From NCBI GenBank assembly GCA_022710935.1, contig JAKLFY010000032.1:1-64000 (forward strand): a stretch of DNA of 64,000 bases, in the 5' to 3' direction. The stretch is from Verrucomicrobiota bacterium. GTDB lineage: Bacteria > Verrucomicrobiota > Verrucomicrobiia > Limisphaerales > J093. Below, one piece after another: positions 31,915 through 37,163 of the stretch; the first letter of the stretch is position 1; each line of letters starts with the position of its first letter. A program made the translations under genes and the position numbers. Below the pieces are notes generated by a model, which had not been told where the DNA came from, did not search any database, and was given only the letters and a program-made list of their open reading frames with translations.

Positions 31915-34713
31915 ATGGAAAACAGTCTCTTCGAACATGAACTGCCCGGAGAACAGGGACCTCAAGCGGCGGTCAACCGCCGCCCTCTCCCGCAATGCGG
32001 GACTTCGCGACCTTGCCGCCCGCATTCGAAGACGCGGAGCGTTTGGAGTGCGCCGCTCTCCCCGTCGAGGTTCATCGCGGGATGCCTGTGTTGGCCGATG
32101 CTGCTGGCGCTGTTGGGAGTCGCCGGGCCCCGACAGGCCGCGAACTCGGATCCGCAGCCAGTCAAGGCCTCTCAGCAAGCAACAGCACCCCAGGTTGTGC
32201 CAGGCTCTGAAGCGCGAGCCACCGTTGTTCTTACCGCGCGCATCATCAACGGCGATCCGGTCGCGATCCGGTCGCCCCGCATCCGCCTGCACGCCCCGGT
32301 TGCGTTGCCGCATCAGGACATTGGCGAACTGGACGTGGAGGGAGATCCGGGACGGATTGCGGACGGCTGGGGGGCGCCCGTGCTGGTGTACGAGCGGGAC
32401 GAACTCGCCCCTGGCGCCATCCTGACCGGACGCTGGACCGCGTGGGCCGCGATCCGCCGGTTCAAATGGGACTTGCATCAAGACGTCCGCGCCACCGGCG
32501 CGGCGCTGTCGGCGGAGGAACAGGCTCTCTCCCTGCGCGACGGCAGGGAGCTTGCCCTGAACAGTCCGGTGATTGCTGCGGCCGCCGAAGAGGCTGCGCG
32601 GGGCAAGACGGACGCCGTCGGGGTATTGGACGGCGCCTTTGGCCTGGTAATGGATCGTCTGACCTATGAGCGGGATGGCAAGTGGCTGCCGGCGCCCGAG
32701 GTGCTTTCGAGCGGGAAAGGAAGCTGCAGCGAATACACCTACTGCTTCATCGCGCTGTGCCGGAAGAACGGCATCCCCGCCCGCTACGTGGGCGGGATCG
32801 TCGGACGGTTGGGTGTGCCGTACTACCTGGACAGGGTGTTTCATCGCTTCCCGCAGGCTCATGTCCCCGGGTTCGGGTGGGTGGACTTTGACCCGACACG
32901 GACGGAACGGGCGGAGAACAAGCGGCTGTATTTCGGCCAGACACCCGGACCCATGCTTCTGACAAGCGTCGGAGACGGCGGTGAGGGGTCTCTGACAGGC
33001 GCGGACTATCTCGAGTCGCATTCCTGGGCCGACAGGGACGCGCGGCGCCGTGTTTCGTCGCTGCGCCAGGCCTGGTGGTTTGCCCCGCCGTCCCCCGCGG
33101 TCCGCGCGCGCGTCGAGCAGTTCCGTCGTCGGCTGGTTTCTGTCGAGGGGGCTCAGCGGGCCGCGCTCGTGGCCGATGCGATCGAGATCGGGGATCCCTT
33201 TGTGCTGCCGTGGCTGGACGATCTTCTCTACGAACCCGTCACGCGCGTGGCGGCGGCTGGCGCCTGCCTTGACATCGGCGGCGAAGGCGCGTTGGCCGCG
33301 GTTGCGAACAGCCTCGAACGGCTGAATGACACCGAGGGCGATCGGCAGATTGGCCAGCGGCTGGACCGATTCACGGGCGAGCAGATCGGCGGCAACCGGG
33401 CCAAATGGAACGAGTGGCTCAAGACACGAACGCCCCGCACGCCGCTGCCAGGCGACCAGGCGTTCGATTTCGACGAGGCCGCGCGCAGTGTTCCCAAACC
33501 CCGCGAGCTCTGGCCAATCGTCCGCAAGCATTGTGTCCCGCTCGATCTGAAGATCCTGTCCGATGAAGTTGTGACGAGCGACACGGATCCGGGCAAGCGC
33601 CTTCGCAAGGTGACGGCGCACTTCTGGTCTCAGGAACTGGCGGGAAAAAAATGGGGGCATCCGTGCACGCTGCTTCTGCCGGCGGACACTGCGCTCCATC
33701 AGACGCCCGACCGCAAGGGCAAGGCCGTCCTGATCGGCTGCCCCGGTCGCGAGGCCTATCCCATCCATGTGGCCAAGTATGGGGAACCGATCGCAGCGCG
33801 GACGGGCTATCCGACCCTGGTGCTCTGCAACCCCGGTGTTTATCCGGACGGGACCGACATCGAACCGGACATTGGCGTCCTGGGCCGACTGGCCCGGGAG
33901 ACCGGTCAGAACTACTACAACATGAACTGTCAGCTCGCCGTCGTGTACATCCAGGCCATGAACGCGCTCGAAGAGCTTCTGAACGTTGAAACCGCGCGGG
34001 TGGTGGTCGGCGGGCACTCGAAGCGGGGTCGGAGCGCGACGGTGGCCGCGGCGATGGACTCGAGGGTTGCGTCGGTGATCGTGATGGGCAATGAGGGCGT
34101 GTACCGCACTGACACCATCCAGCCGCATCTCTCCTTCCACCATGGTTTCTTTCAGGATCAGGTCGAGGTCCCGGTGTTCTACCTGGGCGCCACCAACGAG
34201 GACGGTTACCGCATGTTCAACGTCAACGTGCTCCAGGAACGATTGCGGCGCCCGATGACCATCGAGCTGATTCCCAATTACAGCCACTCGAATTACAGCG
34301 AAATCCAGTTCATGGACTTCCTGATGTGGGTCGCCCACGTCTTCGACGGCCGTCCCATCACACGCATCAGCGACGTCGCGCACCGGCGCCAGAGGAACGG
34401 CACGGTCTTTCGCGCGAGACTGAGCGGCGAGGCCAAGGTGCAGGTGGTCAAGGCCTGGTACGCGTTCACGGACGACCCGGCCTGGCGCGACGTGATGTGG
34501 TATCACGTCCTGATGCGCCCGTCGGGGGATTTCCACGAGGGCTTCCTCCCCGGCAGGATCCCGGACGCCTTTCTGGTTGAAGTGGGCGACATCGCTCTGG
34601 GTATCCCGGGGTATGTGTCGAGCGTGCCGCACAAACTCACCGACGCCCCTGTGATCGAGCGTGTCTCGCGCGGCCCTTACCCGAAGCTGTGGTCGCCCGA
34701 GACACAACCATGA
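31915..34713 (+). CDS. Transglutaminase-like domain fused to a PqaA-like alpha/beta hydrolase
   Basis: A 932-residue exported protein. A transglutaminase-core domain (about 200-345) has catalytic Cys at about residue 271 (GKGSCSEYTYCF), GIPARYVGG and a His/Asp region (FHRFPQAHVPGFGWVDFDPT). A HEAT-like stretch follows (390-470). A C-terminal alpha/beta hydrolase has Ser at about residue 702 in VVVGGHSKRGRSA, closest in style to PhoPQ-activated pathogenicity-related (PqaA) proteins. An N-terminal propeptide lies before the transglutaminase. The first 60 residues are encoded by a dispersed repeat (31953-32067), so the true start may be the ATG at 32098, which gives a better signal peptide. The substrate is unknown; peptide or ester bond cleavage or transfer outside the cytoplasm is inferred. 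Confidence 0.8.
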   Translation: MENSLFEHELPGEQGPQAAVNRRPLPQCGTSRPCRPHSKTRSVWSAPLSPSRFIAGCLCWPMLLALLGVAGPRQAANSDPQPVKASQQATAPQVVPGSEARATVVLTARIINGDPVAIRSPRIRLHAPVALPHQDIGELDVEGDPGRIADGWGAPVLVYERDELAPGAILTGRWTAWAAIRRFKWDLHQDVRATGAALSAEEQALSLRDGRELALNSPVIAAAAEEAARGKTDAVGVLDGAFGLVMDRLTYERDGKWLPAPEVLSSGKGSCSEYTYCFIALCRKNGIPARYVGGIVGRLGVPYYLDRVFHRFPQAHVPGFGWVDFDPTRTERAENKRLYFGQTPGPMLLTSVGDGGEGSLTGADYLESHSWADRDARRRVSSLRQAWWFAPPSPAVRARVEQFRRRLVSVEGAQRAALVADAIEIGDPFVLPWLDDLLYEPVTRVAAAGACLDIGGEGALAAVANSLERLNDTEGDRQIGQRLDRFTGEQIGGNRAKWNEWLKTRTPRTPLPGDQAFDFDEAARSVPKPRELWPIVRKHCVPLDLKILSDEVVTSDTDPGKRLRKVTAHFWSQELAGKKWGHPCTLLLPADTALHQTPDRKGKAVLIGCPGREAYPIHVAKYGEPIAARTGYPTLVLCNPGVYPDGTDIEPDIGVLGRLARETGQNYYNMNCQLAVVYIQAMNALEELLNVETARVVVGGHSKRGRSATVAAAMDSRVASVIVMGNEGVYRTDTIQPHLSFHHGFFQDQVEVPVFYLGATNEDGYRMFNVNVLQERLRRPMTIELIPNYSHSNYSEIQFMDFLMWVAHVFDGRPITRISDVAHRRQRNGTVFRARLSGEAKVQVVKAWYAFTDDPAWRDVMWYHVLMRPSGDFHEGFLPGRIPDAFLVEVGDIALGIPGYVSSVPHKLTDAPVIERVSRGPYPKLWSPETQP

Positions 34714-34724
34714 TCCCGTTCGAT

Positions 34725-34773
34725 GTTGAGTGTTGAGTGTTGAGCGTTGAGCGTTGAGCGTTGAGCGTTCAGC
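34725..34773 (-). repeat. Heptamer array, seven units of GTTGAGC type
   Basis: Seven contiguous 7-base units, GTTGAGT or GTTGAGC and one GTTCAGC. They are the reverse complement of the array at 31843-31905, so the two arrays are inverted repeats around one gene. Confidence 0.85.
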
Positions 34774-34844
34774 GTCCCTTTTGAAGGTCCTATTTGATCA
34801 CCATCGGTCTTGCGCAGACGGCTCGTCGAGAACACAGGCGGATT

Positions 34845-37163
34845 ATGCAACGCTCATACTATCTCTGGCTGATTGGCCTCTTGGGTGTCGCGAGCGCGAC
34901 GCTTGCGGCGGATGTCCTTGATGCCATCACGCGCCAGCAACCGGGCGCGACCAAGCGGTTCTCGAGCGGCCTGTTCGATCCCGAATCGAATCACGATGCC
35001 TATCACCTGGCGCCCGGCCAGCGCCTCACCGCCGCGGAACTCGAGGGCTCGGGCGAGATCCAGCACATCTGGTTCACCGTGGCCGGCGCCGATCGCCGTT
35101 GGCCGCGCGCGCTGGTCCTGCGCATCTTCTGGGACGGCTCCGACGTGCCATCGGTCGAAACGCCCATCGGCGATTTCTTCGCCGCGGGGCACGGCATGCG
35201 GGCCAATGTCACGTCGACTCCGATCGAGGTGACGTCCTACGGACGGGCCCTGAACAGTTACTGGAAGATGCCATTTCGCTCGAACGCCCGCATCGAGCTC
35301 TGGAACCAGTCCGCCGCCCGCATGACTGTCTACTGCCAGGTCGATTGGCTGCAGCGGCCCGCACTGCCCCCGGACACGCTCTATTTCCACGCCCGCTATC
35401 GGCAGGAGTTTCCCGTCAAGCCGTTCTCGCCTTACACGGTTTTCGAGGGCAACGGCGAAGGGCAGTACGTGGGAACCGTGCTTTCGTCTCAAAACAGTTT
35501 CGGCGTCTGGTTCGGCGAGTCGGACGACCGATTTTATATCGACGGCGAGGCCGTGCCTTCCCTGGTTGGGACCGGGACGGAGGACTATTTTACCGACGCC
35601 TGGAACCTGCGCTTGTTCGCCAATCCCAACGCCGGCGTCACGATCTGCGAGCCGCAGAGCGTCGATTGCCGCATCACCGCCTACCGCTGGCACCTCCGTC
35701 CGCCTGTCCTCTTCCGCAAGTCGCTCAAGGTCGACATCGAACGCCGCAGCTTCATCGATGATCGAGACCCGCAAACCGGCGCGCGCCGGCTCCACGACTT
35801 CAAGCACCGGCCGGATTTCTTCTCGTCGGTGGCGTTTTGGTATCAGAAAGACATCGCCCGCCCCTTCTGCGCCTTGCCGCCCCTCGCCGAACGGCTGAAT
35901 CCCGAACTTTGGATCGAGGTGAAGGACCTTGCGGACCGGCTGCCGTGTTCCCCGGGACTCAAACCCGTCGTCCGGTCCAATCGCACCTGCCAGAACAAGA
36001 CAATGCTCTTTGTCGAGAATGACGCCGTCGGCGCGTGGCTCGATGTTCCGTTCGAGATCGATGTCGAGGCGCAGTACTCGCTTTCGGTCTTTCAGGTGCT
36101 CTTTCGGGAATATGGCCGCTGGAAAGTCACCTTGCGCGGCGGCAGTCAGACCAATCTGATCGAGCCTGTCCTCGACTTCTACGATCCCTATGTGGCGCTC
36201 AAGGAGAACTGGCCGGAGAGCCAGGTCTACAGCACGGTGCGCGAGACGAAACTGGGTGTGATGCGCCTTAAGCCGGGGCCATACACACTGCGATTCGAGT
36301 CTGTGGGCCACAACCCGCTTTCACTTGTCCGGAAGACCGGCAAGCCCGGTTTTAGCCTGGCGATGGATGCCATTTCGCTGCGGCGCTTGCCCTGGGATCA
36401 CATGGATCGATGGCTCGAGGACCATCTGACCGCCGAAGCGCGGCTCGACGCCGAGCGCGTGCGCGCGGCACGGGAGACGGTCCGGCAACTCGAAAAGGCA
36501 ATCGCCGACCTGGCAGGCGCCCGCGGCGCCCTGCCCCGAGCACTGGACGAGCTGAGAGCATCTCGACCGGATGCGCTCCTCCGGCTGGATCCCTGGGGCC
36601 AACCCTATCAGTACGCCGCCCCGGGCCTGTTCAATGTCGAGGCCTTTGACGTCTTTTCGTTCCGGGGCAACAGCCGCGCGCCTCTCGATTGGATTGGGAA
36701 CTGGCAGGTTCCCTTTCGATTGGAAAAGGCCATTGAAGGCGAAACTCTCGAGGCGATGGGCGCGCGCAACGGGAAAGCCGCCGTCCAAGCCATTGCGCAC
36801 CGCGGTGTGCCGCCGCTGTCGAACGGCGCGCACCTGTTCCTGCGCTTCAACGGCCCGGGAGATTTCATCACTCTGGCGTTGCCCGACTCGATCCGCCCGG
36901 GCCTCTACGCCGTTGTCCTGAGCACAGTCACCTCGTGGGATTACGCGATTGTTCAGTGGTCGCTGGACGGGGTGGATCTCGGTCCGCCGCTCAACGGCCA
37001 CTCCCCTGACACCTGGCGGCGCGTCTCGATCGCCCGGCAGGTTCGCCTCGATGATCGTCCGCACGCGCTCAAGGCGACGGTCGTCGGGCGCGATCGGCAG
37101 TCGACCGGCTTTGCAGCCAGCCTGGATGCAATCCTCCTGGCGCCGGTTGAAGACGCGCGATGA
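34845..37163 (+). CDS. GH172 (DUF2961) family protein carrying a GspG-like motif
   Basis: A 772-residue exported protein. The ATG at 34845 is preceded by AGGCGG and followed by a signal peptide (LWLIGLLGVASATLA). The N-terminal half is a DUF2961/GH172 domain: FDPESNHDAYHLAPG, IQHIWFT and the signature GTGTEDYFTDAWN. Characterised members act on difructose dianhydride, fructofuranosides or arabinofuranosides. A beta domain follows (about 390-520). A helix then leads into LPRALDEL and LDPWGQPYQYAAPG (Asp582 to about 595), then FDVFSFRGN, which is the calcium-binding end of type II secretion major pseudopilins (GspG). A last beta domain (about 620-770) has a WDYAIVQW strand. The mixture is unusual and reads as one continuous frame. 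Confidence 0.83.
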   Translation: MQRSYYLWLIGLLGVASATLAADVLDAITRQQPGATKRFSSGLFDPESNHDAYHLAPGQRLTAAELEGSGEIQHIWFTVAGADRRWPRALVLRIFWDGSDVPSVETPIGDFFAAGHGMRANVTSTPIEVTSYGRALNSYWKMPFRSNARIELWNQSAARMTVYCQVDWLQRPALPPDTLYFHARYRQEFPVKPFSPYTVFEGNGEGQYVGTVLSSQNSFGVWFGESDDRFYIDGEAVPSLVGTGTEDYFTDAWNLRLFANPNAGVTICEPQSVDCRITAYRWHLRPPVLFRKSLKVDIERRSFIDDRDPQTGARRLHDFKHRPDFFSSVAFWYQKDIARPFCALPPLAERLNPELWIEVKDLADRLPCSPGLKPVVRSNRTCQNKTMLFVENDAVGAWLDVPFEIDVEAQYSLSVFQVLFREYGRWKVTLRGGSQTNLIEPVLDFYDPYVALKENWPESQVYSTVRETKLGVMRLKPGPYTLRFESVGHNPLSLVRKTGKPGFSLAMDAISLRRLPWDHMDRWLEDHLTAEARLDAERVRAARETVRQLEKAIADLAGARGALPRALDELRASRPDALLRLDPWGQPYQYAAPGLFNVEAFDVFSFRGNSRAPLDWIGNWQVPFRLEKAIEGETLEAMGARNGKAAVQAIAHRGVPPLSNGAHLFLRFNGPGDFITLALPDSIRPGLYAVVLSTVTSWDYAIVQWSLDGVDLGPPLNGHSPDTWRRVSIARQVRLDDRPHALKATVVGRDRQSTGFAASLDAILLAPVEDAR

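What the first reader, a model, noticed from the sequence alone, without database searches (positions are those of the whole stretch)
34845..37163. GspG-type pseudopilin motif built into a GH172 enzyme
LDPWGQPYQYAAPG followed by FDVFSFRGN is the hallmark of the calcium-binding end of type II secretion major pseudopilins. Here it lies in the middle of an exported glycosidase-like protein with a helix and LPRALDEL before it, as in GspG. It may let the enzyme dock on a secretion pseudopilus or bind calcium.
Basis: partly seen in the sequence, partly recalled or inferred. Interest (0 to 1): 0.62.

Follow-up and report, generated by a model that had tools for sequence, protein, structure and literature searches.

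The report
Secretion-pilus head domain inside exported glycosidase
An exported sugar-cleaving enzyme of a Verrucomicrobiota bacterium carries the folded head of the secretion-machine protein GspG as an internal part; the same build occurs in Planctomycetota and one Armatimonadota bacterium, but the part has lost the membrane stem and the calcium site that GspG needs for its usual job.

Summary
Window 34845-37163 encodes a 772-aa exported GH172 (DUF2961) enzyme. Residues ~531-622 are homologous to the globular head of GspG: six aligned modules hit only GspG among confident PDB matches (best E 1.6e-11), a profile-profile match has 99.5% probability, and the model matches GspG structures at Z 10.9 (model made with GspG sequences in its alignment). 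The fusion is not a one-off. I found 12 genes in 11 genomes (Verrucomicrobiota, Planctomycetota, one Armatimonadota). They form one clade in the GH172 tree and the modules one clade in the GspG tree, which fits a single fusion. The prepilin signal and membrane helix are absent. Of the two calcium-binding aspartates, one is Trp in all 11 readable modules (Asp in 97 of 105 other GspG-type sequences), and the other is kept in only 3. Best reading: a domesticated, calcium-independent GspG head serving as a rigid spacer or interaction domain between the catalytic part and a C-terminal carbohydrate-binding-like domain. Docking on the pseudopilus is not excluded but unsupported. GspG heads also occur inside alpha-2-macroglobulins and a TPR protein.

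The parts
34845..34910 (+). Sec-type signal peptide of the fusion protein (residues 1-22, MQRSYYLWLIGLLGVASATLAA)
   Evidence: Sequence reading; hydropathy peak only at the N terminus in all fusions.
35106..35846 (+). GH172 / DUF2961 core (residues 88-334)
   Evidence: Pfam PF11175 E 3.8e-71; PDB GH172 enzymes 8ic8, 7v1v, 4kq7, 8ah3, E 3e-39 to 1.8e-48.
35517..35585 (+). GH172 active-site residues E225 (acid/base), E246 (nucleophile), D247
   Evidence: Aligned with E270/E291/D292 of alphaFFase1 7v1v (residue roles from PMC8605356); invariant in the fusions.
35847..36383 (+). Rest of the enzyme part, beta-rich region to residue 513; the plain sister protein L010 ends about here
   Evidence: G052/L010 aligns over residues 12-526 and stops; no Pfam match to residues 372-513.
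36390..36530 (+). Long polar helix (residues ~516-562) leading into and forming alpha-1C of the GspG-like module
   Evidence: AF2 helix at module residues 3-47 in both models; maximal hydropathy 0.45 before DPW in the window protein, no membrane segment.
36435..36710 (+). GspG/T2SSG-like globular module (residues ~531-622), including DPWG 582-585, N609 (GspG D117 position) and W616 (GspG D125 position)
36732..37160 (+). C-terminal beta-sandwich, carbohydrate-binding-like (residues 630-772)
   Evidence: Match to MiXBM 7ehg, E 9.5e-7 with the two-row profile; no Pfam family.
31915..34713 (+). Conserved partner gene upstream: transglutaminase-like domain plus PhoPQ-related alpha/beta-hydrolase (932 aa)
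   Evidence: Pfam; adjacent to the fusion also in L068, L072, L177, L180; in 9 of 10 other fusion genomes and only 3 of 58 relatives.

Best explanation
The gene encodes an exported retaining GH172 alpha-furanosidase-type enzyme whose C terminus gained, once, the globular head of a GspG-type pseudopilin together with (or followed by) a carbohydrate-binding-like beta-sandwich. The head was cut off from its membrane helix, lost the calcium site (an invariant Trp fills the position of the last calcium aspartate and the loop is shorter) and was kept as a folded module. SHOWN: the homology, domain order, single-clade origin, spread over three phyla, loss of the prepilin signal, loss of the calcium ligands, intact GH172 catalytic residues, conserved partner gene. 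INFERRED: it acts outside the cytoplasm as a stiff helix-plus-head spacer or interaction surface that sets the carbohydrate-binding domain relative to the catalytic oligomer, on a furanose-containing polymer that the neighbouring transglutaminase-like/alpha-beta hydrolase protein also processes.
For: Homology: Pfam T2SSG in all fusions scanned, PDB profile search hits GspG only, hhalign 99.5%, model vs GspG Z 10.9, rmsd 1.7 over 87 residues. Conserved fusion. One origin: GH172 tree 100/98 for the fusion clade, plain L010 as sister; module tree 99 SH-aLRT. Under constraint: dN/dS about 0.34 for the module versus 0.12 for the enzyme core, window vs L068. No prepilin motif or membrane helix. Calcium ligands lost. 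Catalytic Glu kept. Partner gene linkage.
Against: The spacer/interaction role is inferred from position only; no binding partner is known. The AF2 model that folds as GspG used GspG sequences in its alignment; with the six modules alone only the helix was confident. L072 stops just after the module, so the C-terminal domain is not always present and a pure spacer role would then be meaningless there. The loop before DPWG is lost in several members.
Confidence: 0.6

Rival explanations
1. The module is a docking or sorting handle: it mimics a GspG head and binds the T2SS (pseudopilus, tip complex or secretin) so that the enzyme is selected for secretion or stays on the pseudopilus at the cell surface.
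For: The fusion genomes looked at for it also hold true GspG genes, the window's genome has a secretin about 8.5 kb from its GspG gene on the same contig, and in G608 a GspG gene lies about 12 kb from a fusion gene.
Against: No membrane helix or prepilin signal, so no normal polymerisation; GspG-specific calcium loop rebuilt; GspG is common in the group, so co-occurrence says little; known pilus-contact positions vary even among GspG, so that test is uninformative.
Confidence: 0.2
2. The module binds calcium at the GspG site and stabilises the enzyme or senses calcium.
For: General resemblance of the region; 3 of 11 modules keep Asp at the D117 position.
Against: D125 is Trp in 11 of 11; the loop is shorter; D117 is N, Q, H or C in 8 of 11.
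Confidence: 0.05
3. The module is an evolutionary leftover or neutral linker with no specific role.
For: It is the least constrained part apart from the signal peptide (dN/dS 0.34), and one loop is lost in some members.
Against: Core motif (DPWGQPY, FDV, WIGNW) kept across three phyla and 11 readable modules; purifying selection remains.
Confidence: 0.12

Closest known systems
GspG / PulG / EpsG major pseudopilin (Pfam T2SSG PF08334; PDB 3fu1, 3g20, 1t92, 2kep)
   Same: Same head: alpha-1C helix, xYP...LxxL, DPWGxPYxY, PG, FD(V/I)(Y/F)S, IGNW; structural Z up to 10.9.
   Different: No prepilin signal or membrane helix, internal position in an enzyme, calcium aspartate D125 replaced by Trp, shorter C-terminal loop.
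GH172 enzymes (alphaFFase1 7v1v, exo-alpha-D-arabinofuranosidase 8ic8, 4kq7)
   Same: DUF2961 core with the catalytic Glu pair and Asp conserved.
   Different: The solved GH172 chains are 374-460 aa; here 772 aa with extra C-terminal domains.
Omnitrophota pseudopilin in L073
   Same: The only one of 105 other GspG-type sequences with Trp at the D125 position: GSDKSNPDVWIANW.
   Different: A true pseudopilin with GFTLIE signal and membrane helix; GSD keeps the first Asp; not shown to be the donor.
MiXBM (7ehg), a beta-sandwich whose name suggests a xylan-binding module
   Same: Weak but significant match to residues 658-769 (E 9.5e-7).
   Different: Ligand of the domain here unknown.

Membership tests
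GspG major pseudopilin | Sequence-profile similarity over the globular head | tested here: met
   T2SSG 26.5 bits on the piece, 37-54 bits in relatives; PDB hits GspG only, 1.6e-11; hhalign 99.5%.
GspG major pseudopilin | GspG-type fold | tested here: met
   AF2 model pLDDT 84; Foldseek top 11 all GspG or pseudopilus, E 0.03-0.5; VIA Z 10.9, rmsd 1.7, 87 residues. GspG rows were in the alignment, so not fully independent.
GspG major pseudopilin | Type III prepilin signal (GFTLxE) and hydrophobic alpha-1N helix | tested here: not met
   No such motif in any of 11 fusions; hydropathy before the module at most 1.26 versus 3.04 in a true pseudopilin.
GspG major pseudopilin | Calcium site with D117 and D125 | tested here: not met
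   D125 column Trp in 11/11; D117 column Asp in 3/11.
GspG major pseudopilin | Encoded in a T2SS operon | tested here: not met
   Window neighbours are enzymes and unrelated genes; the best GspG match in the genome is on another contig, C112.
GH172 (DUF2961) | DUF2961 double jelly roll | tested here: met
   E 3.8e-71.
GH172 (DUF2961) | Catalytic Glu/Glu/Asp | tested here: met
   E225, E246, D247 align with E270, E291, D292.
GH172 (DUF2961) | Activity on alpha-furanosides | not testable with these tools
   Needs an enzyme assay.
Carbohydrate-binding module (MiXBM-like) | Sequence similarity and ligand binding | tested here: inconclusive
   E 9.5e-7 to 7ehg, no Pfam family; binding not tested.

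The most novel reading that the evidence does not exclude
GspG heads have been freed from the pseudopilus several times in Planctomycetota, Verrucomicrobiota and Armatimonadota and serve as portable domains in exported proteins (GH172, alpha-2-macroglobulin, a TPR protein, a possible anti-sigma factor), either as handles that address cargo to the type II secretion machine or as general extracytoplasmic interaction domains.
Probability: 0.25. Interest if true: 0.8.

Novelty: new variant of a known kind. Interest (0 to 1): 0.5.

Why it matters
The major pseudopilin head is known to me only as a filament subunit; in my searches of the open paper library I found no report of it as a detached domain. 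A conserved, apparently single-origin fusion with an exported glycosidase gives a natural experiment on what the head does without the filament, and a soluble natural probe for the open question of how type II secretion recognises cargo. It also warns that DPWG/T2SSG matches alone should not be used to annotate secretion genes.

Tried and rejected
AF2 with the six modules only gave a confident helix but no head (pLDDT 62); the good model needed pseudopilin rows. The pilus salt-bridge positions (E44, D48, R87) were compared, but they vary among GspG themselves, so they prove nothing. Long open frames around several pseudopilin hits (L051, L064, L107, L121, L129, L156, L157, L159) looked like fusions but are out-of-register upstream sequence in high-GC genomes followed by ordinary pseudopilins with a pilin signal. 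PHROGs found nothing. Paper searches for T2SSG domain fusions, pseudopilin-like domains and pseudopilin plus glycoside hydrolase gave no report of this; the library holds only open-licence papers, and InterPro architecture lists could not be consulted. Chance or assembly artefact rejected: 12 genes in 11 genomes.

Full report
WHAT IS THERE. The ORF at 34845-37163 (+) reads through 772 residues with an N-terminal signal peptide. Pfam places DUF2961/GH172 at residues 88-334 (E 3.8e-71) and a T2SSG match at 579-606; on the isolated piece (window 36384-36750) the T2SSG match widens to most of the profile and reaches 26.5 bits, above the cut-off of 21. phmmer finds four GH172 structures, then MiXBM at the C terminus and several GspG chains in the middle.

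IS THE GspG MATCH REAL. A profile of six modules from different organisms was searched against all PDB sequences: the eight matches below E 0.01 are all GspG, from 1.6e-11 (2kep) to 4.6e-4 (5wda); everything else is above 0.2. Pfam T2SSG passes its cut-off in four relatives, 37 to 54 bits. hhalign of the module profile against a pseudopilin profile gives probability 99.5%. An AF2 model from the modules alone resolved only the helix. With 18 pseudopilin-type rows added it reached pLDDT 84, and its matches were GspG structures: Foldseek weak by E (0.03-0.1) but almost only pseudopilins, VIA Z 10.9 with rmsd 1.7 over 87 residues. The structural evidence is therefore supporting, and the sequence evidence is decisive.

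HOW WIDESPREAD. A scan of genome contigs with the C-terminal part found the same architecture in a Verrucomicrobiota MAG (L068; same sequence as G004), three Pirellulales MAGs (L069, L070, L072) and one Armatimonadota MAG (L071). The order-wide search of 320 genomes added G550 and G554. A Planctomycetota sample of 392 added G924 and G845, plus G900, where a run of N interrupts the module. G608 has a second copy. Total: 12 genes in 11 genomes. L072 stops just after the module. The window's own organism is taken as Verrucomicrobiota because G004, same family, is the L068 record (inference).

ORIGIN. In a tree of the GH172 part (34 rows) all 12 fusions form one side of a branch with support 100/98; the closest plain protein, L010 from G052, ends at the point where the module begins elsewhere. 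In a tree of 116 GspG-type sequences the 11 readable modules form one group with SH-aLRT 99. The simplest reading is one fusion, then vertical and probably lateral spread; lateral spread between phyla is inferred, and MAG binning errors are possible. Between window and L068 the dN/dS is about 0.12 for the enzyme core, 0.34 for the module and 0.26 for the C-terminal part, so the module is under purifying selection, though relaxed.

WHAT IT IS NOT. A working pseudopilin needs a prepilin signal and a hydrophobic helix; no fusion has either, and the helix before the module is polar. The GspG calcium ion is held by side chains including D117 and D125 (3G20; PMC3396595). In an alignment of 11 modules and 105 other GspG-type sequences, D117 is Asp in 3 of 11 versus 91 of 105, and D125 is Trp in 11 of 11 versus Asp in 97 of 105. 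One Omnitrophota pseudopilin (L073) shares the Trp.

THE ENZYME PART. Alignment to alphaFFase1 puts E225, E246 and D247 at the positions of acid/base E270, nucleophile E291 and D292 (PMC8605356). These are kept in the fusions aligned. GH172 active sites lie between protomers in alphaFFase1 (PMC8605356), so the module probably projects from an oligomer (inference).

CONTEXT. The gene just upstream (31915-34713) has a transglutaminase-like and a PhoPQ-related hydrolase part. It lies next to the fusion in window, L068, L072, L177 and L180 and occurs somewhere in 9 of 10 other fusion genomes. Its hydrolase part is found in only 3 of 58 relatives: the two with the fusion and G052, which has the plain sister GH172. 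So the partner goes with this GH172 subfamily, not with the module. By hand this is 3 of 3 versus 0 of 55; the chance is about 3e-5, ignoring relatedness. True GspG genes exist in the fusion genomes examined for them, and the window's genome has a GspG gene and a secretin on one contig, so a type II secretion system is probably present.

MECHANISM. Most likely the module is a domesticated head that serves as a stiff spacer or interaction domain between catalytic part and carbohydrate-binding-like domain; this role is inferred. Docking on the secretion machine remains possible and is the more exciting alternative, but nothing found here favours it over the simpler one.

WIDER PICTURE. T2SSG matches in non-pilin proteins occur elsewhere: an alpha-2-macroglobulin of the same genome (L004, 15.9 bits, below cut-off) and of the Armatimonadota genome (L147, 24.8 bits, above cut-off), both between bait region and A2M domain; a TPR protein of a Planctomycetota genome (L172, 86.5 bits); and a protein with a weak zf-HC2 match (L167, 37.3 bits). 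These suggest repeated reuse of the head, but were not followed far.

Noticed in passing
L004 1-3117 (-) and L147 1-3258 (+): Alpha-2-macroglobulins with a GspG-like segment between bait region and A2M domain, in the window's genome and in the Armatimonadota genome; flanking A2M sequence is very similar. The L147 match is above the Pfam cut-off, the L004 match below it. Conserved in the same-genus genome G001 (89%).
   Followed up: partly
L172 888-2939 (-): Planctomycetota exported TPR protein with a strong internal T2SSG domain (E 1.6e-24) and no prepilin signal found.
   Followed up: partly
L167 958-1596 (-): Protein with a weak zf-HC2 match, one membrane helix and a T2SSG-like domain (37.3 bits): possibly an anti-sigma factor with a pseudopilin-like outer domain.
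   Followed up: no
L005 224-1825 (-), L006 1378-3138 (-), L150 1-1779 (+): A family of ~530-590 aa proteins with a helical body and a weak GspG-like C terminus (LPxxLDxL ... PxDPxxGxPLRYR ... YSVGxNGxDDGG); below the Pfam cut-off.
   Followed up: no
L073 3698-4120 (+): Omnitrophota pseudopilin with WIANW instead of DIGNW, the only pseudopilin seen with Trp at the calcium-aspartate position.
   Followed up: partly
window 31915-34713: Transglutaminase-like plus PhoPQ-related hydrolase in one ORF here but split into two frames in G004, G550, G554 and G610; co-occurs tightly with this GH172 subfamily.
   Followed up: partly
window 34723-34778: Short tandem heptamer-like repeat (gttgagtgttgagcgttgagcg) just upstream of the fusion gene.
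   Followed up: no
G608 contig C97 7331-20366: A GspG gene and a GH172-GspG fusion gene about 12 kb apart on one contig, the only such case seen.
   Followed up: no
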